Shown: positions 1 through 39,348 of the stretch, piece after piece
How positions within the stretch are numbered: the stretch's first letter is position 1
Layout: each line of letters starts with the position of its first letter
Source: Diplonema papillatum
Taxonomy: Eukaryota; Euglenozoa; Diplonemea; Diplonemida; Diplonemidae
Direction of reading: 5' to 3'
Assembly (NCBI GenBank): GCA_030068145.1
Contig: JAPJBO010000871.1
Location: 1-64,000 of the forward strand
DNA: 64,000 nt
Translations under genes and position numbers: made by a program
Notes under the pieces: model-generated
What the model was told of the DNA's origin: nothing
Databases searched by the model: none
What the model saw: the letters and a program-made list of their open reading frames with translations, nothing else

Positions 1-511
1 AAGGGGAAACAAATTGAAGTTTCTGGGTGGCATTTCGGGGTGCAATTGGACCATTGGACAATTGGGTGATTTTGCGACATGCCTCACGTTCTGCTGCGCT
101 TTTGCGGCGGCTCTTCTCCTGAGTCTGATTCGGATGGATGCCAGAGTTGAGTCTCTGTCAGAGTCGTCGTCTTCGTCACATTCATCATCATTTCGAGACC
201 GCAAGACCTCATCCGGAAGGTCTTGGTCGTCGTCATGAGAAATTAGCCTTTTTAGAAGATGTCGCGGGTTCTTCACCTTTAGGCCTCGGGATAGCGCCTG
301 TTGCTCAAGCTCACGAGCCGACAAGTTTTCATCGGCTTCTCTGATGTGCTTGACAAGCTTAGCCTTCGTCCAAGATTGGTACGACTTTGTGCCCCGTGCT
401 TGAGCCTGTTCAACCAGCAGCAGCTTCGTCCAAAGACTGACTTCGCAGTCGAATCTCCTTGGCAATCCGAGATCGCTTCCCTGCAAGCAACCTTCCTCAT
501 CGGATCAGTCC

Positions 512-1777
512 TCACAGATGGTGCGACCCGTAGCAGGTGCCGTACAGCTTGCCGATGCGCAGGCCGACCTTCCACGCGGCGTAGGTCACGGTCACTTGGT
601 CCTGCCAGTTGCCGCAGGTCTGCTCCCACCAGATGTCGAAGAACTCGCGGGTCCGGGGGCGGGTCAGGTCGGCCGCTACAATCGCCGTGTGGTGGGTGCC
701 GGCGCCCGCGTACGCGTCGGGGGCGTTGACGAACCCCGAAAACTCGTACAGAGACGCGACGCGGCACGTCGGGGGCCGGAGGAACGCGTCCATGATCTGC
801 GAAGCGACCTCGTCGGCATCGGCCTTCGCGTTCCCAGACCGACAGTCGCCGCAAGCCTCGCACCTCGCGAGAACGGCCTCCCGCAAGCTGTCCTCGAAGG
901 TACCGTCCTCCAGGCCAACAGGACCCAGTCCGCCGTGGTATGTGTTAGTGGAGGGCACCTTGCCAGCATAGCTGCAATTTAGCGGAATCGGCACCGTCAC
1001 CTCCCTCTCCGGTTCCACGTCCGGCGGAAACGGGCGGGACACGTTGTATCCGGGATCTGCCCGCCACGCCAAGTCGCAGTACCCTTCGGTCACCGCGCCG
1101 AGGACCATGGCTGTGAGGTTGTTCATCACGCCCATCGCCCCGTACCTGGGGATGGACGCGCGGAACTCGCCCATGATGCCCAGCCCGCCGTGGACAAGCG
1201 TCATCACCGACGCGTGCGTCTTCAGCCGGTGCTGCGCGTACACCAGCCCCTGCGGCTCGAAAAAGTGGGACGTCGCGTCGGTCCAGAAGAAGTACTTCAC
1301 GTGCGGCGGCAGCAAGCGGTGCCCCTGCAGCTTGTAGTACTTCGCCCGCGCGAACGGGATCGGCTGCATGCACGGGTCGTGCAGGTGGTAGGTGTCCGTC
1401 CGAATCTCGAAGTGGTTCGCCTTCGCCGAAGCCGCCAGCTCCGGCGTGACCGGCTCCTCGGTGAAGACGAACGCGCGGCAGTTCGGGGCTGCGGCGAGGG
1501 CGGGGCCCCAGCTCTTCACGGTTCTGTCCTGGTCGCCGAAGACGGCGGAGAAGACGACGCAGTCGATGTACGCGGGCACGTCCAGCGGGTTCGGCACGGC
1601 GACCAGTTCGGACACCACGTGGCGGGGGAACAAGCACTTCGAAACCAGAGCGGCGGGGTCGGGGATCGACTTCCAAGCGGAGAAACTCTTCTTCCACCGG
1701 GCGGGCTCCCCTCGCCAGAACAGGTCGGCGGCGACGAGAAAGATGAGCATCGCGATGCCCAGGTTTCTCAAATGCAT
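512..1777 (-). CDS. DUF616/TOD1-like type II membrane glycosyltransferase-like protein
   Basis: A 421-residue protein. I start it at the ATG at 1777 because a membrane anchor follows at once; the open frame extends 70 codons further upstream, but those codons run through a poly(A) tract that gives poly-Lys and look like 5' UTR. Residues about 8-22 are a hydrophobic signal anchor, then a short stem. From about residue 71 the text IDCVVFSAVFG, a cluster near C100 (CRAFVFTEEP), FARAKYYKLQGHRLLP and YFFWTDATSHFF resembles the DUF616 (TOD1/MUCI70) glycosyltransferase-like family, in which an Asp in a W-x-D context is conserved. The later half has a Cys cluster (CEACGDC). The likely location is the Golgi or ER lumen, which is inference. 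Substrate unknown. A deleted fragment of this gene lies at 5945-6045. Confidence 0.6.
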   Translation of the reverse strand: MHLRNLGIAMLIFLVAADLFWRGEPARWKKSFSAWKSIPDPAALVSKCLFPRHVVSELVAVPNPLDVPAYIDCVVFSAVFGDQDRTVKSWGPALAAAPNCRAFVFTEEPVTPELAASAKANHFEIRTDTYHLHDPCMQPIPFARAKYYKLQGHRLLPPHVKYFFWTDATSHFFEPQGLVYAQHRLKTHASVMTLVHGGLGIMGEFRASIPRYGAMGVMNNLTAMVLGAVTEGYCDLAWRADPGYNVSRPFPPDVEPEREVTVPIPLNCSYAGKVPSTNTYHGGLGPVGLEDGTFEDSLREAVLARCEACGDCRSGNAKADADEVASQIMDAFLRPPTCRVASLYEFSGFVNAPDAYAGAGTHHTAIVAADLTRPRTREFFDIWWEQTCGNWQDQVTVTYAAWKVGLRIGKLYGTCYGSHHL

Positions 1778-1880
1778 CGGCAAAGCGGAGGGTGGGAGGT
1801 GCGGGGGGATAGAGTTTGGGGGGGAGAGACTGCCCGTAAATGGGGATGAAGGGGCGGTTCTGAAAGACCGCGTCGCCTTG

Positions 1881-1903
1881 TTTTTTTTTTTTTTTTTTTT
1901 TTT
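1881..1903. repeat. Poly(T) tract, 23 nt
   Basis: Uninterrupted T run just upstream of the gene at 512-1777; on the sense strand of that gene it is a poly(A) run in the putative 5' UTR. A retroposed tail or simple slippage are both possible. Confidence 0.9.
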
Positions 1904-1979
1904 GCGTATCCTGTGCAGGGATTTATATAGCTTTTCCTCCTCTGTAGAAAAGTCCTTTTCGCCCTCGGGGTCCTGTGGC

Positions 1980-2335
1980 GGATCCAAAATTAATTAGAAT
2001 TGGCAGTCAAGAGGCAAGCGCTACTGTGCCAGCCTAGCCCAACCTCAATGTTGGTAATAATCGGACAAAATGGTTGAGCTAATTTCCAGTCTGGGGGGCA
2101 GCGCCCCCCAGCGCACGGTACAGTACAGCGAAGAATTCCCGTGCCTAGTATTGAATCCAAATTTAATTAGAATCGGCCAAATCCCGAATCTAACTAGAAT
2201 TGGTAGTCAACGTCTACTGTCGGATCCAAATGTAATTAGACTTGCTAGTCAACGTCTAATGTCGGATCCAAATTTAATTGGAATTGGTCCAATTTTGGAT
2301 CTCAAATTTAATTAGACCTGGTAGTCAACGTCTCG
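1980..2335. repeat. Degenerate 42-bp tandem repeat
   Basis: Units beginning GGATCCAAATTTAATTAGA and ending in TAGTCAACGTCTA recur with a 42-bp step (clear starts at 2222 and 2264) and decay outwards. The array is interrupted by the G/C hairpin repeat at 2091-2127. It is AT-richer than the flanking gene. No coding potential seen. Confidence 0.65.
2091..2127 (+). repeat. G/C hairpin plus ACGGTACGGTACA repeat, copy 1
   Basis: A near-perfect hairpin (CTGGGGGGC, 3-nt loop, GCCCCCCAG) at 2091-2111 is followed at 2115 by ACGGTACAGTACA. The same two-part structure occurs at 30664-30699, 46697-46749 and 46854-46890. Confidence 0.75.
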
Positions 2336-2340
2336 CCACC

Positions 2341-2952
2341 CACCACCCTTTGGCCCTCCCGCCCCTGACCCTCCTCCCTCCTCTTCTCTCTCCTCCTTTT
2401 TACTCATCCTGCCCCCGTGGCTTCGCCATGGCTTCGCCCACCCCAAAACTAATTCAATTCTTTTTTCGCGCTCAGGGTGGCCAGGGTATTAGCGTGACCC
2501 TCAAAATCGTGTACAACCTGAAGATAATGTGAGGGATAGCCATTTTCTGGTGGAGGAAGCAGCAGCTGAAACGTGTTAATTGAAACACCCCGGATCTGAA
2601 GCTATGAAACATTAACACGTTTCGTATTAAAAACTGCACTTCCATAGGGGTTTTGAGGGGTTTTGTACTTAGAGTAAACTGGGGGCTCGACATTAAAAAA
2701 AGGACGCAGGAAAATTGATAGAAAATCTGAACCCGTCAAAAAAGAAATAGGCACCAATTTCTTCGCCCGCGTCAGCCCTTCACCCCAGCGAAGCAGATTC
2801 GACAATCCGGGCGAGTTTCGTGGTGACCGGGTTGAGTGACGCAAATTTACTGGTCGTCCTCATCCGCTTGCTTCCCGTTCGCTTCCCATTTGCTTGATTT
2901 TTATTTACTTATGGTGTTCTGTGTCCCTACCTGCCTTGTCTCTCGAGAGCCC

Positions 2953-2987
<35 letters not shown>

Positions 2988-3084
2988 GTTGGCGGTGGCT
3001 CCCAGCTCTTGGGAGCTGGTTCTTCTGGCTCTTTGGGAGCCAGCGGGAGCTGGGTTTCTGGTGAAAATTTTGCTCGTGCGTGCA
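2341..3084. other. No gene recognised; poly(A) tract at 2957-2985
   Basis: Pyrimidine-rich stretch near 2341-2410, then AT-rich sequence with no convincing reading frame. A 29-nt poly(A) run at 2957-2985 precedes a dispersed-repeat copy. The phrase ACACGTTTCGTATTAAA occurs at about 2617 and again near 4029, so part of this is a dispersed repeat. Confidence 0.5.
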
Positions 3085-3540
3085 GCAGACCTTTTTTGAC
3101 GATTTTTAGCTCGCGACAAGCTCCGATGAAGAGAACCGTGAAGAATAGACCCGGGACCAAGAAGTATGCGTGGTTCGCGGGTCTTTACGAGATGCAGGGC
3201 ACCGGACATGGAAACCACCAGGGTTTTGACGGGAAGGACGGGAATCGATCCCCTGGGTGGTGCCGTTTTTTTTTTTCGCTGTCCACGGAGCAGACCTTTT
3301 TCGACGAATTTACGCTCGCGATCAGCTCCGATGAAGAGATCCGTGAAAATTAGACCCGGGGATTACAAAACATGTGCGTGGTTTGTGAATCTTTGTAAAT
3401 GACAGGGCCCCGCCGCGGAAACCACCGGTGTGCATCGAGAAGGACGGGAATCAATCCCCCGAGTGGTGACATATTTTTGCTGGTCCACGTAGCAGACCTT
3501 TTTCGGCGATTTTTGCGCGATCGGCTTACCCTGCCATCAC
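3085..3540 (+). repeat. Dispersed repeat family with GCAGACCTTTTTCG core, three tandem copies
   Basis: Three diverged copies start near 3085, 3291 and 3489. Each has GCAGACCTTTTTCGACGA, then AGCTCCGATGAAGAG, then a GACCCGGG-type block and an ACCACCGG tail. Further copies lie at 9640-9775 (+) and 9965-10115 (-). The family is 130-150 bp, has no open frame, and is repeated in both orientations, like a short non-autonomous element. Confidence 0.65.
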
Positions 3541-4582
3541 TGACACGTGCCCGCCTAATGAACACCTTCGTGAACACTAGCGTGTCAGGAACTCGTGGTT
3601 GGCACTGGATGCTTGTAACAACTGACCGGTCGCTCCGAAGATGCGTTGTATCTTGCTCGCTTTCTGACTTTTGCGGAAGCAAGATAGTCAGCCACCTTGC
3701 AACGGTCTTTTCCGCCGACACCGACTCTTGGTTCATAGAGACGGACGCTCGAGGATGTCAACATGACGATTGGAGCTGCGGTTACCATTCCTCGCATCCC
3801 AGAGCCCGCCCACGCCTGTCGTCTTCATGCACAAGTGCCAGAACGCTCTTGTCGCTAATACTCTGACCGCGATACGTTTTTCCAGCTCAAAGGCTCGAAT
3901 AAAAATGGGGGATAATCATGGGGTTTCAACAGTTTTCAAATTTCACTAAGTACGTCAGACCCCATGTTTTTAGTACGAAACGTGATAATTAAGAACACTT
4001 TGGCCAAAAAAGTAGCTAAGAGACATTTACACGTTTCGTATTAAACCCGCATACGGTGGTCCAACGGTCAATGGAAAAAACGTGATGTTCAAACGGGGGC
4101 AAGAAAGGGCCAAAACAGCGCCTTCGAGGCCCGGAACGGTGCTGGAAACATGTTGGAGGGTATCAAACACCGGGGGGTGTGCGGTATTCCCTCTCAGCAG
4201 ATGCGTAAACATGGATTTCAGGCCGTTTTGGCGTGTTTCCCGCAGCCCAAATAAATCACCAAAACCTTCTTTCGACTCTTCAGCGGTCGTTTGCGGCAGA
4301 ACTGACCCACGCTTCCTGCAAAATCCATATTTGTGGACCCGTCTGAGAATTGACTTACGTGATTCCCACTTCATCTCCTGTCGTAAAACTCGTGTTTTCG
4401 ACTTCGAGCTCACGTCCCAGTTGCGGCACTGTTCGACGGCAATACCCAGGTTTTGCTGCGGAGGTCAACTTTTGAAGATGGAACGTCGGTTCGAGCCTGT
4501 TTCCAGCGTTGCCAAGTTCCCAAAACACTCAAGCGGCAGTTGTTGGTAACTCAAGTTGCCTTTGGGGCTTGCTAGCCCGGAT
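3541..4582. other. No gene recognised
   Basis: About 1 kb of mixed sequence. Reading frames of up to 155 codons exist on both strands but show no family, membrane segment or repeat that would support a gene. Confidence 0.4.
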
Positions 4583-4927
4583 TCATTGGTGTTCTGAAGT
4601 ATCTTTCCAAGCAGCTGACCGAGCTTCCAAAGTTCTTAATTGCCGCATTTCGTATGCAATGAAGAGCGCGAGAGAGACGACGAGGATGAAGAGTGTTGAG
4701 GGCAGAAGGCAGCTATTCAGTGAGATTTGGAGCATTTGGGTCAAACAGGTGCGGATTCCATAAGTCTGCGTGTTGAAACTACATGCACCGCACGTCATGA
4801 CGGTGCGAACTGATGTCTCAACCGCAGACGACAGAGCAGGCTCACAGTCGACGTCTGGAAGCAGTTCAAAGTCAAACAAAACCACTTTCACCGCTGTCTG
4901 CTCCAGGCCGGCACCTCTGAGCGTCAT
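4583..4927 (-). CDS. Hypothetical small membrane protein
   Basis: A 114-residue frame starting at the ATG at 4927. It ends with a strong hydrophobic segment (LPSTLFILVVSLALFIAY) followed by a charged tail, as in a small C-terminally anchored protein. Its start codon overlaps the stop codon of the next upstream frame (4924-5211) in the form ATGA. The two frames could therefore be one gene broken by a frameshift or joined by splicing. I recognise no family. Coding status rests only on the membrane segment. Confidence 0.3.
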   Translation of the reverse strand: MTLRGAGLEQTAVKVVLFDFELLPDVDCEPALSSAVETSVRTVMTCGACSFNTQTYGIRTCLTQMLQISLNSCLLPSTLFILVVSLALFIAYEMRQLRTLEARSAAWKDTSEHQ

Positions 4928-5211
4928 TGCCAGCTGCACTGTTGTTGGGGACCACCCGCGACCCGACTTAACGCTTCTCGGCGTTCGAAACTCCTCGAGC
5001 TCTTCTCACGCTTTTTGCCTTTCTGTTTCGCCTGCGCACAGTATCCTGTAAGGCGGTGTTCTGACTGTCGGAACCATAAAAAGTGGCCAACGAGCCGTAC
5101 AAACGAGCCTGCCTGGGCTGCCAACCTTCCGAGCAGGCCAGAAGGGTCCACCAATCCCAGTCTGCTCAGAATTTCAGCTCGTTCGCGGTCCGACTGTCTC
5201 GTCGGCAACAT
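4924..5211 (-). CDS. Hypothetical protein, ATGA overlap with 4583-4927
   Basis: A 95-residue frame with an ATG at 5211. The first half has Arg/Leu-rich helix-like sequence (RERAEILSRLGLVDPSGLLGRL) and a short hydrophobic stretch (VRLVGHFLWF). The second half is Lys/Arg-rich. No family recognised. It may be the N-terminal part of the same gene as 4583-4927. Confidence 0.25.
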   Translation of the reverse strand: MLPTRQSDRERAEILSRLGLVDPSGLLGRLAAQAGSFVRLVGHFLWFRQSEHRLTGYCAQAKQKGKKREKSSRSFERREALSRVAGGPQQQCSWQ

Positions 5212-5353
5212 TGAGTCGCATTTCGCTCGTCAGGGGGGCGCATTCAGCCTTTTGCTCACGTTTTAAGTTCACTCCGCTAGTGTTTGGGCGCACCCCCGAG
5301 CTCGTATTTCCTTCTTAACCGCCCCGAAAGTCTGGAAAAAACAAAGTTGCTTA

Positions 5354-5430
5354 CCGTGTACACACCGTGTACACACCGTGTACACACCGTGTACAGACCG
5401 TGTACACACCGTGTACACACCGTGTACACA
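5354..5430. repeat. 11-bp tandem repeat CCGTGTACACA, 7 copies
   Basis: Seven head-to-tail copies with one substitution. Each unit contains the palindrome TGTACA. Flanking sequence to the next feature holds nothing I recognise. Confidence 0.95.
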
Positions 5431-5944
5431 TCAATCCATGAGGTTTAGTGGTCAAAAAATGCCCTGCTGTTGACCGACTGACCCTGCTGTTGACACTGTG
5501 GTACAGTCACAGGCCGAGGTCTGCACAGTTTGCGTCAGTTCAAGAGCTCTCTGCGGTCGGTAAGTTGTAGCATTTCGGCTGGTCCTACCTTTTTTACGCG
5601 AGGCTGCACAGTCTCTGAACGCTTCTGGAGTCCAAAATGCACCCGGATACATCTTTTAGCGTTCTTTGTGGCAACATGACCCGCAAGATGGTATGCTTGG
5701 CTGAAATTCAGCTCGGAGTCGCACTTTATTGTCGCCGGCGGCTGAAGGAGAGAATTGTGCAAAATGTCCACACTTTGTCCACACTTTCAAAACCCCTAAA
5801 AAAGAGATTTTGCGACCAAACGCGGGCGGTAGGTTAGGAAGGCGCCGGGGGTGGTGCCCCATGCAGTCAACAGACTTTGCCGCCAGAGCTCGAAAAACTG
5901 CAAAACACGTTTTTTTGGCTTGCCATTGGACGCTCCTACCTTCC

Positions 5945-6045
5945 CCGCCAGCTCCGGCGTGACCGGCTCCTCGGTGAAGACGAACGCGCGGCAGTCGCAG
6001 GAACAGGTTGGCGACGACGAGAACCATGAGCAGACGGCAGTGAAC
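5945..6045 (-). pseudogene. Deleted fragment of the DUF616-like gene
   Basis: A 50-nt block at 5945-5994 matches 1432-1481 of the gene at 512-1777 exactly (the part coding for C-R-A-F-V-F-T-E-E-P-V-T-P-E-L-A). It is joined directly to a diverged match (5997-6038) of the signal-anchor region at about 1714-1752. The roughly 230 nt that separate these blocks in the parent gene are missing. The fragment sits in unrelated sequence and cannot encode a working protein. Confidence 0.75.
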
Positions 6046-6858
6046 TGAAAGGTCGCATAACAGTGGCGCTCTTGTGCTACCCGGGCTTAGAAGCACATGC
6101 TGCGTATGGATCGGACTGATGAAACTCTCGAACCGATGCGGTGAAACGAGGTTTCGTGCTGCAAGGGGACGAACGCTAGCTTGTCGTCCAAGTCCTCGGT
6201 GAGGTACTTAATGACTCTTTGGCGCCGCGGTGCCCAGGTTTGCGAAACGCATCTTCCCACGAAAGTGGAGGCGGGGGGGTGTCGTTGTCATTGGTGCTGG
6301 TTTTGAGGGATAACTAAATTGCCTCCTTGGAGAGAGGCACTCGGAGCCGTTGTTCCTTCTCCATCCGCCAATTTAACATCCGTTTAATTCACGTCACACC
6401 AATCAAAGGATCATTCACGGTTAGCTCTCCTTAGCTGGCTTGCTGGTACCTTGGGAACGAGCTGACCGGCGAAGTTGGCTGGGGAGATCGGTCCCCCTGG
6501 CTACCGAATCAGTCAGCCAAGACTCCAGCTCAACTGGCGAAGGCCCGAGTTGGCTTCAATCTAACACAACTGGCTGCGGCGGGCCGGCTCACGATGCCTG
6601 GCTGTTCGCATTCGCGTCGCGGGACTCTGGGATTTTCCCAATGGCTCTATCCCAATGGACCGACGCAAAAGAGAAGAGAAGCCAAAGATCAGCGCGCAAG
6701 AATCAGCCGCCTACGGCACGGATGTGCACTGGAGGGTACCCGGGACCAAGAAATCTGCCACCGCCTCATCAATCGTCTGAAGGCTAGGCACTAACCGGGC
6801 ACCGCCCACGGAACACTGGCCCAGGAGTGGGCGAGGCGGCTCGGAAGGTCCTCGATGT
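6046..6858. other. No gene recognised
   Basis: Sequence between the gene fragment and the RT relic. Short frames only; nothing supports a gene. It may include the 3' part of the retroelement relic at 6859-7590. Confidence 0.35.
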
Positions 6859-7590
6859 TCATCTCGCTTGAAACTCTCTCAAACCATACGCGAGCCTTCG
6901 CCCTTGCCACAACCTGTGGACAGGGGCAAGCAGCATCCCAGCCCTGGACTGGCCCTGGACAACGCCCGTCATCTCTTTGAACCACAGACCGAACGCCACC
7001 GACACGGCTGCGAACTCCAAAGCGTGAATCGGCAGCCCGGACGCCCTGGCAGGAACCGGGCAAGAGTAGGACTCGACAGACGACACCACGCCGTCCGTAA
7101 AAACAACAAGGACGGCGCCCAGCCCCTTTGGGCAGGCATCCGTGAACAGGACGCACTTGGTCCCCGTATCCGGACTCACCGGGGCGAGGGGAACCGACTT
7201 TTCAAAGACACGGACCTCACTCCTCAGGACGTCAGCCCACCACGGGAGCGATACGCAAAGCTCGCGACCCAGCTTGAAGTCCCGGTACGTGGACGACGCA
7301 TTGGCGCGCCTGAATAGAGGGTGGAGAGGTACCCTACCCACCTTGCCGAATAGGGAGACCCTAGTTTCCCGGCGCGACGCCGCCTCCCGGTGCGAGCGAG
7401 TCGCGAGCGAGAATGCCCTCCAGAACGAACACCAGTTTCTCCTTCCGTGGTTCCGTCAGGGAAACGAGCACACCCTCCCCATCTATCGAGAAAATCAAGC
7501 CCAGGTGCCGAAAGCTGTTGCCCTGTGAGGTCTTTTCGTCGTTGAAAGAGGTGCGCAAAATGCCGCCCAGCAGCAATGACAATTCCGGGT
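6859..7590 (-). pseudogene. Reverse transcriptase/RNase H relic of a retroelement
   Basis: Two frames in register order show the end of an RT followed by an RNase H-like domain. At 7361-7582 the text FNDEKTSQG followed by FRHLGLIFSIDG is the RT thumb-side N-x-x-K-T / h-L-G motif. At 6859-7341 LFTDACPKGLGAVL and IHALEFAAVSVAF are the first two acidic RNase H motifs. A stop codon just upstream of the RT part and the frame change between the parts show that it is broken. The RT and RNase H arrangement resembles the element at 35881-37426, but the sequence is only distantly alike. Confidence 0.6.
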
Positions 7591-8347
7591 CCCCAGGCTC
7601 GTGCTATACAGGGACTGTATCCCACCTGGCCGGACATCGGACAACCCTCCCTGAGATTCGCCAAGAGGCCGTCGGGCTCGGCGATCCCCAGCTCGACAAG
7701 CACTTCGCCGAGAAGGGCCGCGTGGCAGGCATCCCCTTCACGGTCCCCCGCCCTGCGCCTCCAGCGGTTCAAAAATACTCTGCGACTGCGCTGAGCCTCC
7801 AACACCGGGGACAGGGCGCTGGAGCCGATCGCCTCCCGGAGTTCCTTATCCACTTGGGGCATGTCCCTGACTTCCGGTACCCCAGAGCCCGTTCCAAGAA
7901 CGCGTACCTGCAGGCCGCCCGCGGGGTCGCTGCGCCCCGCTTCTTCGTCTTGATGATAGGGGTCTGATAAGACCACGATGAGAGAGTCGATGATTATGAT
8001 GACCAGCCTGATACGCTGGCGGGAAAACGGGAAGCTCGGGCGACAGCGCCCTGCCGCCCTCGGTTCCACTTCCTGCCGGAGTCGACAAAGGCTTGTAGTC
8101 GTCTCAAGCCCTTCCTTGCCGGCCCGCTGTCAACTCTGTTCCTAAACCCACCGACCTGCGGCCAGCCGGTGGGAGAGAACACCGGACCCTTCGACGCCAC
8201 AACTAGGGTGAGCTGGAGCTCGCCGAGGACATCGGTGTCCAGCTTCAGCAGGCGGTCACACGCGGCCCCTAGTGTCACCGGACCATCAAGCCAACCTCGG
8301 CACGACCATCTCAATACTGAGCGAGCGTCATGTCATCTTCCCCCTTT

Positions 8348-8426
8348 GTCTCCCGTTTCAAGCTGAAGACGAGAGGTTGAAGGCCGTCTCCCGTTTCAAG
8401 CTGAAGACGAGAGGTTGAAGGCCGTC
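8348..8426. repeat. 38-bp direct tandem duplication
   Basis: Two identical units beginning GTCTCCCGTTTCAAGC at 8348 and 8386. They lie between the RT relic and the 84-bp repeat. Confidence 0.9.
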
Positions 8427-8546
8427 CCAGCACCCAGATAAAACAAGTACACACGTCCGCGACGGGCGCCCACCCGCCTGAGCGATCTGACGCGTCCGCG
8501 ATCGGGCGCATGCCATGCGCCCGGTCGCGGACGCGTCTCCTGGACA

Positions 8547-8817
8547 GATCTCAAACCAAGCGAGCTGCACGCCGTGCACATGGCACGGCGGATCTCAGCT
8601 AAGCGAGCTGCACGTCATCGAGGCCAGATGGATCTCAAACCAAGCGAGCTGCAGGCCGTACACATGACACGGCGGATCTCAGCCAAAGCGAGCTGCGCGT
8701 CATCGAGGCCAGACGGATCTCAAACCAAGCGAGCTGCACGCCGTGCACATGGCACGGCGGATCTCAGCCAAGCGAGCTGCACGTCATCGAGGCCAGACAG
8801 ATCTCAAACCAAGCGAA
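8547..8817. repeat. 84/85-bp tandem repeat, about 3.2 copies
   Basis: Units beginning GATCTCAAACCAAGCGAGC at 8547, 8631, 8716 and 8800. The last copy is truncated where the unique part of the reading frame at 8749-9294 begins. Within a unit the half GATCTCAGC-AAGCGAGCTGCA is a diverged echo of the other half, so the array has an older 40-odd-bp subunit. Confidence 0.9.
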
Positions 8818-9294
8818 GGCTCCCCCACGCTCCTCTCCCCCGGGCCAGAGCTCCTCGACCCCCAGCTCTGGGTCGGCCTCAGCCCCATCGAGAAGTCGCT
8901 GGCCCTAGTGCACATCCGCGACATTTTCGCCGACATCCTCGATGCCATCCCGAGCGTCGCCAACGACGCCCAACATCTCACCAACCACGTCACCACCATC
9001 ATGCGGCTAATGGACGACACCACCGACCCAGATGCCCTCGTCCAGCTGGGAAGGGACACCATTCACCGGATGATGGTCCTGAAGACAGCTCTGAAAGCCG
9101 GTTGGTCTCTTGCAGGCAGCCTCCAGCACCGGCATCAGCACGAGGCCGGGTTTCCTCCGTTTCTACGGAGCGTTTTCCAAGCTCTACAGAAAGCCGAGGA
9201 GCAGCCCACCTCGAAGCCGCCCAGGAAGCGCAGCCCGAGGCCCCGCAGTCCCTCGAGTATTTCCCTTCCAAAAGGTATGCGGGTGGCAGAGTGA
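8749..9294 (+). CDS. Helical gag-like hypothetical protein
   Basis: A 181-residue frame from the ATG at 8749. The first 22 residues are encoded by the 84-bp repeat. The rest is strongly helical (LSPIEKSLALVHIRDIFADI, then HVTTIMRLMDDTTDP, LGRDTIHRMMVLKTALKAG) and ends in a Pro/Arg/Ser-rich basic tail (KPPRKRSPRPRSP). A helical core plus basic tail beside a retroelement relic suggests a gag-like or ORF1 protein; this is inference. The stop codon lies inside a tRNA-like stretch. Confidence 0.4.
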   Translation: MARRISAKRAARHRGQTDLKPSEGSPTLLSPGPELLDPQLWVGLSPIEKSLALVHIRDIFADILDAIPSVANDAQHLTNHVTTIMRLMDDTTDPDALVQLGRDTIHRMMVLKTALKAGWSLAGSLQHRHQHEAGFPPFLRSVFQALQKAEEQPTSKPPRKRSPRPRSPSSISLPKGMRVAE

Positions 9295-9524
9295 CCGGGC
9301 GTCGGCCTTCAGGCCGGTAGGCCCGGGTTCGGACCCCGCCCATGACACTTTTCGGTCGAAGATTGGTTTCGAGGTTTGTTGTGTTTCGGGGTCCAATGTG
9401 CCTGAAAATTGCGTTTTTTGCGGAGTTCCTCAGTATCTCGCGGTATTTAGGTCACCACGGGCCCGAACTTTGCTTCGCCCGAACATTACTGTTCCCGAAC
9501 TTTAACAGCTGCCTCCAGTCAGTG

Positions 9525-10235
9525 TGGGCCGCACCGACCTCCGCACCGGTGCGGGCGCACCGGTGCGCACCGGTGCGCTGTTCGGTGCGCCGGTGCGCTA
9601 CACAATTCCTTTGTTGGGGAGATTTTGTCGCTGGTCCAAGTAGCAGACCTTTTTCGTCGATTTTATGCTCACGTTCAGCTCCGATGAAGAGATTTGTGAA
9701 AAATGGACCCAGGGAACAAATGGTTCGTGGGTCTTTCTTGTGTTCAGGGCAGCCGGGCACGGAGACTACACCGCGGTTTGACAAAAGTTTGCACCATAGA
9801 TTCACGCCAAAACGGTCAAAACTACCAGCGCAATAGTGTTGTTTCGTCGGGGTCAAATGTCAAAAAACGTGCCCTGCGGGAATTGATAGTTTCGCGTGCA
9901 CAGGCATTTGAACCAGGAAATCTGAAACGGAAACTTCAATTTCCACGATTTCCATTTTCACGCGGATCCACGTCCCGGTCCCTGGCTCGACGAACCACGT
10001 ACCAACTCTATGGCCTCCAGGTCCATTTTCCACAGATCTCTTCATCGGAGCTGATCTCGAGCAAAACATCGTCGAAAAAGATCTGCAACGTGGACCTGCG
10101 ACTCTGAGCGAAAAACAGTCCAAAAAACGACAACCCAGGGCATCGAACCAGCGCACCGCACCGACCGCACCGGTGCGGTACCCGGTGCAGTGCGCACCGG
10201 TGCGCCGCACCGCACCGGCCCGCCGCCCACACTGC
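9525..10235. repeat. Inverted pair of dispersed-repeat copies with GCACCGGTGC clusters
   Basis: The left arm (9525-9775, plus) and right arm (9965-10235, minus) each contain a cluster of GCACCGGTGC-like palindromes followed by the GCAGACCTTTTTCG / AGCTCCGATGAAGAG dispersed repeat. The arms face each other across about 190 bp. The palindrome clusters are at 9530-9600 and 10155-10225. Confidence 0.7.
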
Positions 10236-10447
10236 TCCAGTCTCGCCCCGCGCCGGCCTTTAGCCGAGCGCACGTACTTCTCTTTGGCTTGCCAAAAAAG
10301 ACCCCTGCGACCGACACCACGAACACATTCGCAATGAATGTGGCCCTCGGCCCCCCACGTGCATACATGTTGAGCATTAAGTTTTGTAAAGTGCAAGTGC
10401 CATCAAGGCAGGCGAGCACTATTCACGGGCCAGACAAAGAACCGAAG

Positions 10448-10682
10448 GGATCCCAAGTGCTGTAACTACCGAACCACGTGTTGAACGGACGTGAGGTCAT
10501 GCGGGTCTACCCCTGCACGACCAATCACACAAACACAACAGTCAAAGTCCTGAGTGAGAAAACAACCCACGGTGGTGTAAGCGAAGAAACAAATCAGATT
10601 GTGTTTTTGTACTGTATTTGCCCCTCTGCCTCTGTATTTCCTCCCTTCCATTCGGAGTCAAAGCAGCTACGTCGAGTATTTC
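10448..10682 (+). repeat. Dispersed duplication, inverted copy at 49503-49708
   Basis: The text from GGGATCCCAAGTGCTG through TCACACAAACACAACAGTC to AGCAGCTACGTCGAG matches 49503-49708 in reverse complement. The later copy lacks about 50 bp in the middle. No reading frame is shared sensibly, so this is noncoding duplicated material. Confidence 0.75.
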
Positions 10683-10972
10683 CCAGCAGATCCATTCCCA
10701 GCCCCAGAGAGCCTCCGCCCAGCGGGGCTGCCGGGGCCCTCCGGGCACCGGCCAGCGTGCCTTCGACGCCGGACACGCCCCTGATCACGAAACAGCCGCG
10801 GCGATTACTGCGCAAACGACGCCGGTTCAAAGACCGAGCGCGTGGAATTCTTGGCCCGCTGGAAAGAGAGGCCATCGCAACTTCCGTCGCATGGGGCTGG
10901 TCCGCGCCACGTGGACCTCCCGGACGAGATGCTGCGGGATCTGCACCCCGGACTTCAGCAGCCATGTACTAT

Positions 10973-11402
10973 GAGGGAGTGCCACTTCCGCATTGAGGGA
11001 GTGCCACTCCCGCATTGAGGGAGTGCCACTTCCGCATTGAGGGAGTGCCACTTCCGCATTGAGGGAGTGCCACTCCCGCATTGAGGGAGTGCCACTCCCG
11101 CATTGAGGGAGTGCCACTTCCGCATTGAGGGAGTGCCACTTCCGCATTGAGGGAGTGCCACTCCCGCATTGAGGGAGTGCCACTTCCGCATTGAGGGAGT
11201 GCCACTTCCGCATTGAGGGAGTGCCACTTCCGCATTGAGGGAGTGCCACTCCCGCATTGAGGGAGTGCCACTTCCGCATTGAGGGAGTGCCACTTCCGCA
11301 TTGAGGGAGTGCCACTTCCGCATTGAGGGAGTGCCACTTCCGCATTGAGGGAGTGCCACTCCCGCATTGAGGGAGTGCCACTTCCGCATTGAGGGAGTGC
11401 CA
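10973..11402. repeat. 22-bp tandem repeat, about 19.5 copies
   Basis: Unit GAGGGAGTGCCACTTCCGCA plus TT, with a single T/C variant (ACTTCC or ACTCCC) scattered through the array. It joins directly to antisense 28S sequence on the right. A second array of the same unit with the same junction is at 35232-35463. Confidence 0.97.
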
Positions 11403-11560
11403 GGACCGACTGACCCATGTCCAGTTGCTGTTGACACGGAAGCCTTCTCCACTTCGGCCTTCAATTGAATATTCGCTACTACAACAAAGATCTGCACTCA
11501 CCCGCACCTGCATCGAGGCTCACGCCAACGACTTCGCGGCGTGGACCACGCACTCCTACG
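11400..11560 (-). rRNA. 28S rRNA fragment, antisense
   Basis: Read on the minus strand this matches the eukaryotic 28S segment that ends GGGTCAGTCGGTCCT; on the plus strand it begins AGGACCGACTGACCCATG, then CCTTCTCCACTTCGGCCTTC and AAGATCTGCAC. Similarity fades by about 11560. An isolated fragment, not an rRNA gene. A near-identical copy is at 35461-35620. Confidence 0.8.
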
Positions 11561-11654
11561 CACGCCTGGCTTTGTTGGAGGCCGACCGTACAAAACGACC
11601 GCAAAACCACTGCCGCAAGAGGAGTCCGGGGTGTGAGTATCCGGAGCCGACGCG

Positions 11655-11870
11655 TGCGTTCTAGCGTTATTTGTGGATTAGAAGGTCTGTATTTTAAGGT
11701 CGCCGGTTGACCGTAGAGGCTTGGGTATGGAGGGGGTTGACAAAAGTGAGAGGGTGCCGCTCGTTTCGGGTGATGTGTCGTTCCGTTGTGAACCCTTGTG
11801 GAGTCCCCGAACGCGTTTAGGGGGCGTTTGGGATTGGGTAGGGTGTGGTCGTCTGCTACGGCGTGAAAAG
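11655..11870 (-). promoter_or_regulatory. Shared upstream module, copy 1
   Basis: The block TAGCGTTATTTGTGGATTAG / TCTGTATTTTAAGG / CGGTTGACCG, followed by CCGAACGCGTTTAGGGGG, occurs here, at 35717-35880, and in diverged form at 19056-19110 and 19500-19695. At 19 kb it lies immediately upstream of a minus-strand gene. On that strand it contains CTTAAAATAC-type AT-rich text. A shared promoter/5' region or the end of a mobile element are both possible. Confidence 0.4.
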
Positions 11871-12997
11871 CCAGGAAGTTTCGACGCTAATCTTCGACTC
11901 TTGATTATGTTCACCGGGTTGCGTGCTCGTCAGGAAGATCCCAGTGCCTGGCTTTTCTTCTGGGTGGTTTCATGGTGCTCGGGCGTTCTCTTCGCGGAAG
12001 GGGAAACCAACAGGGAGCGGGTGTTTGGAGAATCTCTCCCCCCTCCGCAGGAGGAACGTGAAGGCGGGCAAGCAGTGGGGTCCGCAGTCGCTGCGCGCGA
12101 CGCAGCACGGAAAAAGAAGGTCGGGGAATATTATTCTCTCAAATAGGGAACGTGTCAGCTAGACTTTGGCGGACACTTGCCGGCATAGCTGAGAACTCCC
12201 CCCCTCCCCCACCCTTATATTTTTTTGACGGACAGATGACGGCATGGCAAACCATGGCTTTGTGCTATAGGCTACTGTGGCCGACGCCCCTCGTCCCCCC
12301 TCCCCCTCACCCCCTGGGGGCAAACCTTTTTCGACAACTGAAACTTAGTTAAGCCGGCAGCATGCACCCGTGCAGGGACCCTATAGGTCCTCCGGTGACA
12401 GGAAGTTCGATTTCCGGCCTAGTTTCAGCGACTGACGAGGCTTAAAAGATAGGTGAACCCCAATTTTCATGGTTTTGGACCTCGCCACTTACTAAATAGC
12501 TGATAGCACCCTGTTCCTGCAGTTCTGCACTTGTTCCTGCGCTTCTGACCACGGTTCAGTGCTCTTGAACACCGCTCCTGACCGCGGTTCTGCACTCCTG
12601 ACCACGTTCCTGCCCTCCTGGCCATGTTCCTTGGTTTCTGAATCTATCAGGAGTGACTGAGTGCTGGGCACTCGTGTTTGCACAGTGTCTGAAGGATCAC
12701 TTGATTGCATCGGGAGTGGCGGCGTTGGGCAGCTGACAAAGGCGCATCGTCGTCGGTCGCAATCGGTTGCGGAGGTGTGCGAGGTGTCGCGGGTTCGCCT
12801 TACGCACCGAGTGTACGTCCATCCCTCCTATCCCGTTTGCTCCAGCTCTTGCACCCCTTCACTTGTCTGGTGGGCAAATGACCGCACTTCAGACACCGGT
12901 TCATTGTTTCCAGTGACGGTTCATCTGTATTTCTGCACTTCAGGTGGTGAAGCGGAAATTCTGTCATTTCTTCTGGAATTTAAGTAAGTCTGACCAT
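11871..12997. other. No gene recognised; degenerate repeats and a tRNA-like stretch
   Basis: Contains degenerate repeats around TTCCTGC and CTTCTGACCACGGTTC at 12510-12640, a tRNA-like but unfoldable stretch at 12339-12428, and C-rich runs near 12200 and 12300. No coding frame with support. Confidence 0.4.
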
Positions 12998-13080
12998 CTA
13001 TGTAGTGATTCTGATCAGCTATTTAGTGAATCCGACCAGCTATTCACTGAATCTGGCCGGCTATTTAGTGAATCTGGCCA
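12998..13080. repeat. 21-bp tandem repeat, about 4 copies
   Basis: Diverged units of the form CTATTTAGTGAATCTGGCCGG. No coding implication. Confidence 0.85.
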
Positions 13081-13394
13081 TAAAACTGGTGGTTTTGGCC
13101 TGTTCTTCCAACTTTTGACACCGGCCAGTCCCCGGTGAGGGCACTGCTGTGGATTTTGGATCCAGATTGGGATGTTTTCGACAAGATCAGGACCAAAGGT
13201 GCTGCACAGGGCAACTTGTGCCCCATCGAGCCACCGAGGCCTATGAGGGGCTGAAAATGCCTCAAAAAGGCACAAGAGGGCACAATTATGCACCACAGAC
13301 TGCTAAACACCCCCCCACAAAGTCATCATGTACCGAAAAAAGGCCGTTGGTTTTCAAGGATTGCCCTAAAATGCACTATAACGCGAGAAAAAGG

Positions 13395-13611
13395 TTAACC
13401 CCGGCTGGCCAAGGGTGATGCGAAGAACTCACTCGCTAGGAATGTCCCCACGCGTCCAGCTTCTCGGGTTCGTCTCTCCGTGCGAGGTGTGCAAGAACGT
13501 GCTTGGAATCGGATGTGTGCTGCTTGTTTCAGTTCTTTGCAACCTTCGATGTCGGCTCTTCCTCACCCGGTGGCTCGAGAAGCACTGGACCTCTCTCCGT
13601 CAGTAGGGTAA

Positions 13612-13655
<44 letters not shown>

Positions 13656-14044
13656 GTTAGTGGGTGAACAATCCAACCCTTAGACAATTCTGCTTATCTA
13701 GGTTAGGAAGAGCCGACATCAAAGGTTGCAAAGGACTGCAACAAGCAGCACACATCCGATTCCAAGCACGTTCTTGCACACCACCCGCCCTGGTGCCACG
13801 CAGTGAAGGGGGGGTGCAGATATATTCGCGCTCTTTAACCCCGGCTGGCCAAGGGTGATGCGAAGAACTCACTCGCTAAGAATGTCCCCACGCGTCCAGC
13901 TTCTCGGGTTCGTCTCTCCGTGCGAGGTGTGCAAGAACGTGCTTGGAATCTGCTGCTTGTTTCAGTTCTTTGCAACCTTCGATGTCGGCTCTTCCTCACC
14001 CGGTGGCTCGAGAAGCACTGGACCTCTCTCCGTCAGTAGGGTAA

Positions 14045-14088
<44 letters not shown>

Positions 14089-14484
14089 GTTAGTGGGTGA
14101 ACAATCCAACCCTTAGACAATTCTGCTTGTCTAGGTTAGGAAGAGCCGACATCAAAGGTTGCAAAGGACTGCAACAAGCAGCACACATCCGATTCCAAGC
14201 ACATTCTTGCACACCACCCGCCCTGGTGCCACGCAGTGAAGGGGGGGTGCAGATATATTCGCGCTCTTTAACCCCGGCTGGCCAAGGGTGATGCGAAGAA
14301 CTCACTCGCTAAGAATGTCCCCACGCGTCCAGCTTCTCGGGTTCGTCTCTCCGTGCGAGGTGTGCAAGAACGTGCTTGGAATCGGATGTGTGCTGCTTGT
14401 TTCAGTTCTTTGCAACCTTCGATGTCGGCTCTTCCTCACCCGGTGGCTCGAGAAGCACTGGACCTCTCTCCGTCAGTAGGGTAA

Positions 14485-14528
<44 letters not shown>

Positions 14529-14924
14529 GTTAGTGGGTGAACAATCCAACCCTTAGACAATTCTGCTTGTCTAGGTTAGGAAGAGCCGACATCAAAGGTT
14601 GCAAAGGACTGCAACAAGCAGCACACATCCGATTCCAAGCACGTTCTTGCACACCACCCGCCCTGGTGCCACGCAGTGAAGGGGGGGTGCAGATATATTC
14701 GCGCTCTTTAACCCCGGCTGGCCAAGGGTGATGCGAAGAACTCACTCGCTAAGAATGTCCCCACGCGTCCAGCTTCTCGGGTTCGTCTCTCCGTGCGAGG
14801 TGTGCAAGAACGTGCTTGGAATCGGATGTGTGCTGCTTGTTTCAGTTCTTTGCAACCTTCGATGTCGGCTCTTCCTCACCCGGTGGCTCGAGAAGCACTG
14901 GACCTCTCTCCGTCAGTAGGGTAA

Positions 14925-14968
<44 letters not shown>

Positions 14969-15364
14969 GTTAGTGGGTGAACAATCCAACCCTTAGACAA
15001 TTCTGCTTGTCTAGGTTAGGAAGAGCCGACATCAAAGGTTGCAAAGGACTGCAACAAGCAGCACACATCCGATTCCAAGCACGTTCTTGCACACCACCCG
15101 CCCTGGTGCCACGCAGTGAAGGGGGGGTGCAGATATATTCGCGCTCTTTAACCCCGGCTGGCCAAGGGTGATGCGAAGAACTCACTCGCTAAGAATGTCC
15201 CCACGCGTCCAGCTTCTCGGGTTCGTCTCTCCGTGCGAGGTGTGCAAGAACGTGCTTGGAATCGGATGTGTGCTGCTTGTTTCAGTTCTTTGCAACCTTC
15301 GATGTCGGCTCTTCCTCACCCGGTGGCTCGAGAAGCACTGGACCTCTCTCCGTCAGTAGGGTAA

Positions 15365-15408
<44 letters not shown>

Positions 15409-15533
15409 GTTAGTGGGTGAACAATCCAACCCTTAGACAATTCTGCTTGTCTAGGTTAGGAAGAGCCGACATCGAAGGTTGCAAAGAACTGAAACAAGCA
15501 GCACACATCCGATTCCAAGCACGTTCTTGCACA
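13395..15533. repeat. 440-bp tandem array (five units) made of palindromic 28S rRNA pieces
   Basis: Units start at 13395, 13835, 14268, 14708 and 15148 (periods 440, 433, 440, 440; the second unit lacks 7 nt, GGATGTG). Each unit contains a 78-nt inverted repeat: in unit 1 the arms are 13486-13563 and 13705-13782, nearly perfect complements. The left arm ends in sense 28S sequence (CTTCGATGTCGGCTCTTCCT). The loop and right arm carry the same 28S region in antisense. The fifth unit stops at about 15533 and continues into an inverted copy of the unit start. Small frames inside are by-products of the repeat. Confidence 0.95.
13601..13730 (-). rRNA. 28S rRNA fragment, antisense, inside repeat unit 1
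   Basis: Plus-strand text CAGTAGGGTAAAACCAACCT, CTCACGACGGTCTAAACCCA and GCTCACGTTCCCTG is the reverse complement of the conserved 28S region before the sarcin-ricin loop. It continues into AGCCGACATC, the complement of GATGTCGGCT. Equivalent pieces begin at 14034, 14474, 14914 and 15354. Confidence 0.9.
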
Positions 15534-15660
15534 CCTCGCACGGAGAGACGAACCCGAGAAGCTGGACGCGTGGGGACATTCTTAGCGAGTGAGTTCTTCG
15601 CATCACCCTTGGCCAGCCGGGGTTAAAGAGCGCGAATATATCTGCACCCCCCCTTCACTG
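15534..15660 (-). repeat. Inverted end of the 440-bp array
   Basis: Reverse complement of a unit's start, from the text that precedes GGTGTGCAAG back through the TTAACCCCGGCTGG start and the run of seven G. The array therefore ends in a head-to-head junction, about 20 bp before sense 28S begins. Confidence 0.9.
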
Positions 15661-15680
15661 CGTGACACCCGCCCTCATTG

Positions 15681-15990
15681 GTAACCTAGACAAGCAGAAT
15701 TGTCTACGGGTTGGATTGTTCACCCACTAATAGGGAACGTGAGCTGGGTTCAGACCGTCGTGAGACAGGGTGGCTTTACCCTACTGATGGAGAGAGAGCC
15801 CATCGGGCCAGCGCATTCCGACAGCAATACGGGGTAGTACGAGAGGAACTCCCGTTTTTCCCTGGTATCTACGGTTGTTCGATCGGACAGTGCCGTGATG
15901 ATACCACTGGATGGATTATAGCTGAACGCCTCTAAGCAAGAACCAGTCTAGTGGAATGCATGAGTCACTCAGGGCACACCGCGTGAGGAA
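15681..15990 (+). rRNA. 28S rRNA 3' fragment, sense
   Basis: Contains GGATTGTTCACCCACTAATA, GGGAACGTGAGCTGGGTT, GACCGTCGTGAGACAGG, the sarcin-ricin loop AGTACGAGAGGAAC, and GGATTATAGCTGAACGCCTC near the 28S 3' end. Conserved order is kept over about 310 nt. Short replacements (such as the segment after GAGAGGAACTCCCG) may be lineage-specific or show decay. A related copy starting at the loop lies at 33653-33800. Confidence 0.9.
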
Positions 15991-25640: not shown

Positions 25641-26339
25641 GGTAATGATGTTTAGTCTTCGAGACAGACATTTCAACCGGGTTGGCCACAACACGGCACG
25701 CTGCAATGGAACGGTCGCCCGCTGATCACTGCATCTCAGTATTTTATACGGCACTGGATATCTTGTATTGAGCAGAATTTAACCCTATGGTCTGCGCAAG
25801 ATTCTTGTCCTCGCTGAGCTTGCCTTCGGACACCTGCGTTAACGTGGAACAGATGTGCCAGCCAAACCTATTCAGCCCTTCAGTTGCGGGCGGGGGTGTT
25901 GTGGCAGGCTTGCTCTTGTCGGGCGCTACTGCTCGGCAGTGGGCGACGCGTATCGCAGCCGTTGGTTCCCAAGCCAGCTTCGGTACTGCTGCCGTAGGTT
26001 CCCCCACCTCTGCGGTCATGCGTGTATGAGCCGGTCCGTCCCTATCTTTTGAAACTGCATCGAAGTGCCTGCCGCTGTTTATCACAGTGAATCACGGTGC
26101 ATCCAAACGAGGATTCGCGAGCCGACACCCGTTTGTCGCCGGAAAAGGATGAGCTACGGATCTGAAGACCCTAACCCTACAAAGGGAGCAGGATAAGGTA
26201 AGCGCACAACAAGAGAGTAGTGGTGTTCCATTGTTGCGGCTTCCCGCCTATTCTACACGCTCTCGTCTTCTTGTGCCACGAGAGCCGTGGCGGGCCGCAC
26301 GGCGGAAAGAGCAAGCGAAGATTCCGATGCCTACTCTGA
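25641..26339. other. No gene recognised
   Basis: Moderate-GC unique sequence. Frames of 80-113 codons exist but none shows motifs. Confidence 0.35.
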
Positions 26340-26530
26340 TTACGAACTTGTCACTAGCTCACAGCAACAGTTGCAACCGACAAAGGTTGCACCACAACGA
26401 AAGCGCGGAAAAAGTGACCCTTCAGGAGTCACGTTGTGAGAAGCTGGCATAGTGTGGCACTCGTGTACATGCAAATGACTCCCCACTAACGCAACAACTG
26501 CCGAAGAAGGAGTCCAAAAGCGAAGCAACA
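26300..26530 (+). repeat. Dispersed gene-like fragment, inverted copy at 34020-34250
   Basis: One frame reads SEDSDAYSDYELVTSSQQQ then LQPTKVAPQRKRGKSD, an acidic-then-basic stretch like a nuclear protein. The same DNA occurs in reverse complement at 34020-34250 with stops. Shorter pieces (CCACTAACGCAAC with flanks) recur near 26775 and 55743. Probably a fragment of a gene or element dispersed several times. Confidence 0.55.
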
Positions 26531-29000: not shown

Positions 29001-29196
29001 GTTTCGATGATGATGTTTAGTCTTGGGGGGGGGACCGACGTTTACCATTTCCCGGAAAAAGTCGATCAGACGATGGGGGTTCCGCATGCTGCTTAATGGC
29101 TGGCGGAAAATTCACAAAGGGGTCCCTAAGGCTGAGCGGAGCAGCGGGTCCTTGATTTTTTTTGGAAAAACAGGTCGTTCGAATGAAACTCTCACC

Positions 29197-29440
29197 GACC
29201 TGAGCTGTTTGAAGATCTACACGCTGAACTTAAGCATGCCACTCAGCGCAGGAAAAGAAAGCAACAGCGATGCTCCTAGTAACGGCGAGCGAACAGGGCA
29301 GAGCCCAAGTCTGAACCGGTGTTCTACGGACATCCGGAATGTGGCGCAAGCTGCTTGGGGGCACAACTGGCATCGAGGTAAGTCTCCTGGGGTATCCACA
29401 GAGGGTGAGAGTCCCGTATTTCCTCGCGGGCCATGTTGGT
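29197..29440 (+). rRNA. 28S rRNA 5' fragment, sense
   Basis: GACCTGAGCTG leads into ACGCTGAACTTAAGCATGCC, ACTCAGCGCAGGAAAAGAAA, CTAGTAACGGCGAGCGAACA and GGGCAGAGCCCAAG, the conserved start of eukaryotic 28S. ACAGAGGGTGAGAGTCCCGT follows about 180 nt later as expected. Similarity stops at about 29440. No 5.8S or ITS is seen upstream. Confidence 0.93.
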
Positions 29441-29692
29441 TAACTCCTTGCTAGCTTCCTCGGAACAGTTGGAGACTAAACTTCCGAAGGCCTCGGAACA
29501 GTTGAAGACTAAACTTCCGAAGGCTTTGCTGGAGGCCGGGGTTGAGCGGTACTAGATGAGGTTTGAACCGGGTTGGACATAACATGGCAAAACCCGTATC
29601 CTTCTGCTGCATTTCGCATCCCCAGTCGCGTCCACGCAGAGTGGGCGAGAGGGAGCGCGAACAAGCAACGAAACTGATGCCAACGTCTGGCC

Positions 29693-33652: not shown

Positions 33653-33800
33653 GGTAGTACGAGAGGAACTCCCGTTTCTAGTCCCTGGTATCTACGGTTG
33701 TTCGATCGGACAGTGCCGTGATGCTACCACTGGGTGGATTATGGCTGAACGCCTCTAAGCCAGAACCCAGTCTAGAGGAATGCGTGAGTTACTCAGGGCA
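33653..33800 (+). rRNA. 28S rRNA 3' fragment with sarcin-ricin loop, sense
   Basis: Contains AGTACGAGAGGAACTCCCG, CTACGGTTGTTCGATCGGAC and GGATTATGGCTGAACGCCTC. About 95% like 15838-15980 but truncated just before the loop. Confidence 0.9.
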
Positions 33801-34019
33801 CATCGGATTTTTCGGGCCACGACTAGCTTCGGCGAACGGCAACTTCCAAATTCACATCCAGATCCCTCCCAGCAGCCTGTTCTAGTTCTCACTTCAGCCT
33901 GCAGTTCCTGGCAAAGGCCGGACACTTGGCGGAGTGCGCTCCACTGGCCCCGTTTTTCCGGCTCATGTACAGGTGTCGCATACCATTTTTCTGGCTCAGA
34001 CTTGCGGGCTTCACGGAAA

Positions 34020-35620: not shown

Positions 35621-35716
35621 AGGCTTTGTTGGAGGCCGACCGTACAAAACGACCGCAAAACCACTGCCGCAAGAGGAGTCCGGGGTGTGAGTATCCGGAG
35701 CCGACGCGTGCGTTCT

Positions 35717-39278: not shown

Positions 39279-39348
39279 CGTGAGCCAGGTGGCAGCAACG
39301 GGTTCCGCCGCCACCGATTCCGAACAGGAAGGTAGGGAGGGGGGGCTG

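What the first reader, a model, noticed from the sequence alone, without database searches (positions are those of the whole stretch)
13395..15660. Array of foldback units carrying antisense 28S rRNA
Five 440-bp units each contain a 78-nt nearly perfect inverted repeat whose loop and right arm are antisense to a conserved 28S region. Transcripts from the + strand would fold into hairpins and could pair with rRNA. The array ends in a head-to-head junction and abuts a sense copy of the same 28S region. Near-identical units imply recent amplification. This could be a source of double-stranded or small RNA against rRNA, or simply a rearranged rDNA pseudogene.
Basis: partly seen in the sequence, partly recalled or inferred. 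Interest (0 to 1): 0.8.

Follow-up and report, generated by a model that had tools for sequence, protein, structure and literature searches.

The report
Foldback array of 28S rDNA fragments
A scrap of ribosomal RNA gene in what is almost certainly the genome of the marine protist Diplonema papillatum was copied into hairpin-forming tandem repeats, most likely as neutral genome debris, although any transcript could in principle feed the cell's RNA-interference machinery.

Summary
Window 13395-15535 holds five direct units (440 bp; one of 433; the last partial) with 82-nt arms, mostly 95% complementary, around a 133-nt loop. Four units carry 121-126 nt perfectly antisense to 28S; the fifth differs by one base. 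The array ends head-to-head beside a sense 28S piece. Correction: only about 25 nt of the right arm is 28S; most antisense 28S lies in the loop. The host is almost certainly Diplonema papillatum, where about 3600 scattered 28S pieces are published. The non-28S segment was found only here and on contig C639 (plus 25 nt at the end of C2596). C639 and the window look like two halves of one array cut at the same unit position. Inner units are homogenised, the outer joins fall inside dispersed repeats, and the left flank is a recent segmental duplication. Arm differences are uncompensated. An unrelated foldback-tandem array lies in a small sample. Best reading: a neutral 28S-fragment satellite made by inverted duplication and tandem amplification, then broken. 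The small-RNA idea is unproven but testable: the genome has eight Piwi-domain matches, and in the related Trypanosoma brucei seven of seven long inverted repeats gave small RNAs.

The parts
13395..15535 (+). Tandem array: five direct foldback units U1-U5 (U2 is 433 bp, U5 partial, 388 bp)
   Evidence: TRF 440 x 4.9, 98%; spacing
14268..14707 (+). Representative unit U3 (440 bp)
14359..14440 (+). Left arm of U3 hairpin, 82 nt; 21 nt near its inner end (14416-14436) are sense 28S
14464..14598 (-). 28S piece (Rfam LSU 2875-2984 over 14489-14598; peptidyl-transferase region by recall), antisense on the + strand; most of the loop plus the first 25 nt of the right arm
14574..14655 (+). Right arm of U3 hairpin, 82 nt
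15454..15669 (-). Inverted terminal copy of the non-28S segment (head-to-head end), 216 nt, 99% complementary to upstream units
   Evidence: I1-I3
15682..15981 (+). Sense 28S piece, 94.7% to the genome's 28S, joined at CATTGGT|AACCTAG
13394..13395 (.). Breakpoint: array begins inside a dispersed repeat; 8 of 9 other fetched copies continue CTAAGTGG, while the ninth, contig C2596, shows the same join as the window; complementary within 1 nt to the end of the C639 array
1..13394 (+). Left flank: segmental duplication of C639 (99.9% over 1-9799; 99.3% over 10001-13075; 100% over 11700-13394; 9800-10000 not compared with C639)

Best explanation
A 28S rDNA fragment, one of thousands scattered in this genome, was joined to a non-ribosomal segment A. 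Replication or repair template switching then produced a foldback (inverted duplication); its full form survives on contig C639 as 220-nt arms around an 18-nt centre. Deletion of the centre left the shorter partial palindrome that became the 440-bp unit. Unequal exchange amplified that unit in direct orientation to some seven or eight units. The array was later cut at one unit position and its halves now lie on C639 and C871 (the window). It has no demonstrated function; it is a neutral rDNA-derived satellite. Shown: unit anatomy, the two places found, junctions, homogenised inner units. Inferred: single origin, order of events, mechanism, neutrality, and that the split is biological.
For: A 116-nt piece of segment A has 9 matches from 9 candidates in the 271-Mb assembly, and the reversed-A plus linker part 15 matches from 10, all on C871 or C639; C2596 ends with 25 nt of A. 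C639's array has only a left outer flank and ends ...CGCTCTT; the window's starts TTAACC... and has only a right outer flank. The intact unit reads CGCTCTTTAACC, so the cuts agree within 1 nt. At 28S column 12 edge units V0 (C639) and U5 (window) keep the native base, while inner V1, V2, U1-U4 share a derived T; of nine A copies only V2 and U1, the two beside the cut, share G at column 67. The unit junction CTTCCT|CACCCGG and right-end junction CATTGGT|AACCTAG use the same two breakpoints. Joins lie inside dispersed repeats. Of four recurrent arm differences three break pairs and one is G-U; no pair changed on both sides. C507 holds an unrelated foldback plus tandem array; an 18S piece in the window is partly tandem. 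Published: about 3600 28S pieces, nearly 2% of NUMTs in tandem.
Against: No reads are held, so neither unit number nor split can be confirmed. Mirrored variant order (V1 deletion, V2 G, then U1 G, U2 deletion) is not explained by a simple cut. V0 also has changes at 28S columns 62 and 92. The variant shared by the two outer sense 28S copies is one site only. The tool warns that skipped common words mean no match does not prove rarity. Junction homology, judged by eye, is 0-1 nt, which does not identify a repair route. Lack of compensatory change is weak because the units are young.
Confidence: 0.78

Rival explanations
1. The array is transcribed and its hairpins are cut into siRNAs, a minority antisense to the 28S peptidyl-transferase region; these may act on rRNA or simply silence the array.
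For: Very stable hairpins. A transcript reading through the right end could form a 115-bp, 95% complementary 28S duplex, and C639 holds 220-nt arms that include the 28S piece. 8 Piwi-domain matches; published two Dicer-like, five Piwi, three Argonaute, one RdRP. In T. brucei 7 of 7 long inverted repeats give small RNAs (PMC3447711, passages). Antisense ribosomal siRNAs silence rRNA in C. elegans (PMC8450093, abstract).
Against: No transcription evidence. About 57 of 82 right-arm positions are not rRNA. In T. brucei, reads on rRNA lacked the siRNA size distribution, and its repeats are 422-10,011 bp, far longer than 82-nt arms. Arm differences are not compensated. My RdRP and RNase III searches did not complete.
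Confidence: 0.15
2. The array, or its split between two contigs, is an assembly artefact (chimeric or palindromic long reads, repeat collapse).
For: The left flank is a recent segmental duplication, which assemblers may misjoin. The published assembly merges contigs of two assemblers.
Against: Two contigs show the same unit with private variants. A third contig, C2596, crosses the left join by 25 nt, 100% identical over window 11700-13419; it may be the same locus assembled again, so it is not fully independent. Most arms are diverged by several per cent and short, unlike a whole-read palindrome. One chimera would not make two complementary broken ends.
Confidence: 0.07
3. The unit is a mobile foldback or SINE-like element carrying 28S sequence.
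For: The genome's authors compare the scattered 28S pieces to TRIMs and SINEs; two genomic places.
Against: Segment A was not found elsewhere. The ends are complementary halves with no matching outer flanks. I saw no target-site duplication by eye.
Confidence: 0.04

Closest known systems
Scattered 28S rRNA gene pieces of Diplonema papillatum (PMC10161547; passages and section 8 seen)
   Same: 28S fragment of under 10% of gene length, outside the rDNA unit, in what is almost certainly the same genome
   Different: They are described as scattered pieces; this one is a foldback amplified in tandem. The main text has no word beginning 'palindrom' or 'antisense'; supplements not seen
Tandem NUMT arrays of D. 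papillatum (same paper)
   Same: A captured gene scrap amplified in tandem in nuclear DNA
   Different: Mitochondrial source; no inverted arms mentioned in the section read
Foldback inversions and inverted amplification in yeast (PMC7467729, search listing; PMC10766183, abstract)
   Same: Inverted duplication by hairpin or template switch at short inverted repeats
   Different: Here the final array is of direct repeats of a partial palindrome; the mechanism is inferred from the end product
siRNA-producing inverted repeats of Trypanosoma brucei (PMC3447711, passages)
   Same: Inverted repeat in a euglenozoan whose genome encodes Piwi-domain proteins
   Different: Those are 422-10,011 bp, near-identical and with sequenced small RNAs; none shown here
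Antisense ribosomal siRNAs (risiRNAs) of C. elegans (PMC8450093, abstract)
   Same: Antisense to rRNA
   Different: They arise in response to erroneous rRNA, not from a genomic hairpin array

Membership tests
Dispersed 28S rDNA piece (D. papillatum) | Near-identical to the genome's own 28S, outside the 7.6-kb rDNA unit | tested here: met
   96.5-97.9% over 142 columns in five units; rDNA unit 7628 bp on C217
Dispersed 28S rDNA piece (D. papillatum) | Length up to 10% of the gene | tested here: met
   142 and 304 columns against 3477 nt
Tandem satellite | Head-to-tail units with homogenised interior | tested here: met
rRNA-derived SINE / foldback transposon | Many dispersed copies with common ends | tested here: not met
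   9 matches from 9 candidates to segment A at two places only; plus 25 nt at the end of C2596
rRNA-derived SINE / foldback transposon | Target-site duplication around the insertion | tested here: inconclusive
   None seen by eye at outer ends; halves have different flanks
siRNA-producing inverted repeat locus | Predicted foldback RNA | tested here: met
   0 of 200 shuffles, 0 of 100
siRNA-producing inverted repeat locus | Size-specific small RNAs from the locus | not testable with these tools
   No reads held
siRNA-producing inverted repeat locus | RNAi machinery in the genome | tested here: inconclusive
   Piwi domain found, 8 matches; RdRP and RNase III searches unanswered, published as present

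The most novel reading that the evidence does not exclude
Hairpin transcripts of this array, and the longer 28S duplexes at its two ends, supply siRNAs antisense to the peptidyl-transferase region of 28S that tune or police rRNA in a diplonemid: a genome-encoded counterpart of C. elegans risiRNAs born from rDNA debris.
Probability: 0.04. Interest if true: 0.85.

Novelty: new member of a known kind. Interest (0 to 1): 0.33.

Why it matters
It shows in one place how scattered rDNA scraps can turn into a foldback satellite and then break up, with junctions clean enough to propose an order of events. If small RNAs came from it, it would be a genomic source of antisense rRNA siRNA in Euglenozoa and would make the question of how antisense rRNA siRNAs arise directly testable.

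Tried and rejected
Rejected: a dispersed mobile family; chance; bacterial-type promoter and terminator scan, uninformative in a eukaryote. Pfam on six frames of the window named only a reverse transcriptase (35846-37423) and a C-type lectin domain (39349-46623), in 2 of 6, nothing bearing on the array. I did not search for the original join that a reciprocal translocation would need. A wider sample (about 380 kb asked) for the density of rDNA pieces could not be taken; I used 22 records (window, 17 kb of C639, two 10-kb samples, 18 loci fetched because they matched two repeats or a 28S piece), which are not a random sample. My first print of the left join mis-sliced L045 and did not turn the minus-strand copies; one search corrects it and revealed the C2596 join, for which I lowered the artefact rival from 0.08 to 0.07. 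Papers: searches; none of the listings showed this array, which is not proof that it is unpublished.

Full report
What is there. Five direct units start at 13395, 13835, 14268, 14708 and 15148. Read on the + strand, U3 and its lead-in consist of: segment A (non-ribosomal, about 168 nt, 14248-14415); 21 nt of sense 28S; a jump to the opposite strand; 27 nt of a non-ribosomal segment B reversed; 135 nt of 28S reversed (antisense, 14464-14598); 57 nt of A reversed; then a 32-nt linker back to A. The 82-nt arms are therefore mostly A, and only 25 nt of the right arm is 28S. This corrects the finding as written. The 28S part covers positions 2875-2984 of Rfam's eukaryotic LSU model; from recalled knowledge that is the peptidyl-transferase region. 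U2 to U4 each carry 121 nt perfectly antisense to the genome's own 28S, U5 126 nt, and U1 96 and 24 nt split by one base. Unit 3 folds to -188.3 kcal/mol, 0 of 200 shuffles as stable.

Whose genome. The assembly holding the window has 271,365,524 bases in 2910 contigs and a 7628-bp rDNA repeat with 18S, 5.8S and 28S. The published Diplonema papillatum assembly has 280,293,864 bp in 6181 contigs, a ~7.6-kb rDNA unit, about 3600 scattered 28S pieces, five Piwi and three Argonaute proteins (PMC10161547, passages and section 8). I found eight Piwi-domain matches from eight candidates, five in tandem on C924 and three elsewhere. The species is thus inferred, not named by a tool; the taxonomy entry exists.

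How many places. The whole unit gave 68 matches; only 40 of 922 candidates were scored, so that is a lower bound; 40 of the 68 lie on other contigs and cover the 28S part only. A 116-nt piece of segment A gave 9 matches from 9 candidates, all on C871 or C639. The reversed-A and linker part gave 15 matches from 10 candidates, again only there. C2596 ends with 25 nt of A, which those searches did not list.

Two halves of one array. C639 has A, sense 28S, B, an 18-nt centre, then the full reverse copy (arms 220 nt, 11 positions not Watson-Crick), two direct units V1 and V2, and an end at CGCTCTT. The window starts at TTAACC. An intact unit reads CGCTCTTTAACC. C639 keeps only the left outer flank, the window only the right. 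Variants agree in part: the edge unit V0 keeps the native base at columns 12 and 134 of the 28S piece, and U5 at column 12, while the inner units share derived bases; V2 and U1, next to the cut, alone of nine A copies share a G. Against a simple cut: the 7-bp deletion sits in V1 and U2, a mirrored order that I cannot explain; V0 also has changes at columns 62 and 92. The two outer sense 28S copies share one variant, which is weak.

What surrounds it. The left join falls inside a dispersed repeat: in 8 of the 9 other fetched copies the sequence continues CTAAGTGG where the window switches to the array; the ninth, C2596, makes the same switch as the window and then ends. C2596 is 100% identical to window 11700-13419, and has no mismatch but three gaps over 9855-13075, so it may be the same locus assembled twice. 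The right join on C639 falls inside another repeat, 795 first-look candidates: 9 of 9 other fetched copies read on to the left of it with a common sequence. The window's left flank is a recent segmental duplication: C639:12491-22299 matches window 1-9799 at 99.9%; window 10001-13075 matches two places on C639 at 99.3%, and window 10001-12884 one on C545 at 99.2%; window 11700-13394 is identical to two places on C639.

Junctions and mechanism. The unit's inner junction (CTTCCT|CACCCGG) and the right-end junction (CATTGGT|AACCTAG) use the same two breakpoints, as a deletion and its reciprocal would. Homology at them, judged by eye, is 0-1 nt. I infer foldback by template switching or hairpin repair, loss of the centre, then unequal exchange. 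Yeast work on foldback inversions (PMC7467729, listing only) and template switching (PMC10766183, abstract) shows that inverted duplications arise in such ways; nothing here proves that route.

Is it special here? In 22 records, which are not a random sample, five had inverted arms of 40 nt or more at 85% or more within 1 kb: the window (one of 19 pairs lies outside the array), C639 (8 pairs, all in the array), L066, L049 and L062. L062 (C507) is an unrelated foldback with tandem units of 79-169 bp. rDNA matches appeared in 8 of the 22; two of these (L053, L054) are only 22-25 nt and may be chance, and two others (L035, L039) were fetched because of such a match.

Function. No expression data are held. 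Stem positions that differ between arms are T-C, C-A, C-T and one G-U pair; they recur in U1, U3, U4 and V2, and U5 has only the C-T; no pair changed on both sides to stay paired (U2 and V1 have a 7-nt deletion in the left arm and were left out of the count). This gives no support for selection on pairing, though the units are young. A transcript through the right end could form a 115-bp 28S duplex (-269.8 kcal/mol, 0 of 100 shuffles). In T. brucei seven of seven long inverted repeats gave small RNAs, while rRNA reads lacked the siRNA size distribution. I therefore keep the small-RNA reading as a rival at 0.15 and a regulatory role at 0.04.

Noticed in passing
window 10972-11402 + 11402-11575 and 35233-35465 + 35465-35621: Two copies (98%) of a 22-bp tandem repeat (TGAGGGAGTGCCACTTCCGCAT) directly joined to a 28S piece, also on C639 (x2), C2596 and C545; in the second copy a frame with a reverse transcriptase domain follows (35846-37423). 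A 28S piece may be part of a retroelement.
   Followed up: partly
window 1-13394: Segmental duplication; two copies about 15.46 kb apart on contig C639 (spacing of matches), part also on C2596 and C545.
   Followed up: partly
window 38942-39281: 18S rDNA piece, partly duplicated in tandem (170-bp period, 39008-39360).
   Followed up: no
window 25749-26852: Four diverged 28S pieces (82-90%) in gene order but interrupted by other sequence: perhaps an old broken 28S insertion.
   Followed up: no
window 29159-29455 and 33653-33866: 28S 5'-end piece (94%) and a piece of the 28S 3' part (98.6%).
   Followed up: no
L062 2314-3190 (C507): Foldback followed by 79-169-bp tandem units, not rDNA: same architecture, other sequence.
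   Followed up: partly
G000 C924:13568-37564: Five identical-scoring Piwi-domain matches in a 5.78-kb tandem array.
   Followed up: no
window 39349-46626: 2425-codon minus-strand frame (stop to stop) with a C-type lectin domain near its start, in GC-rich DNA.
   Followed up: no
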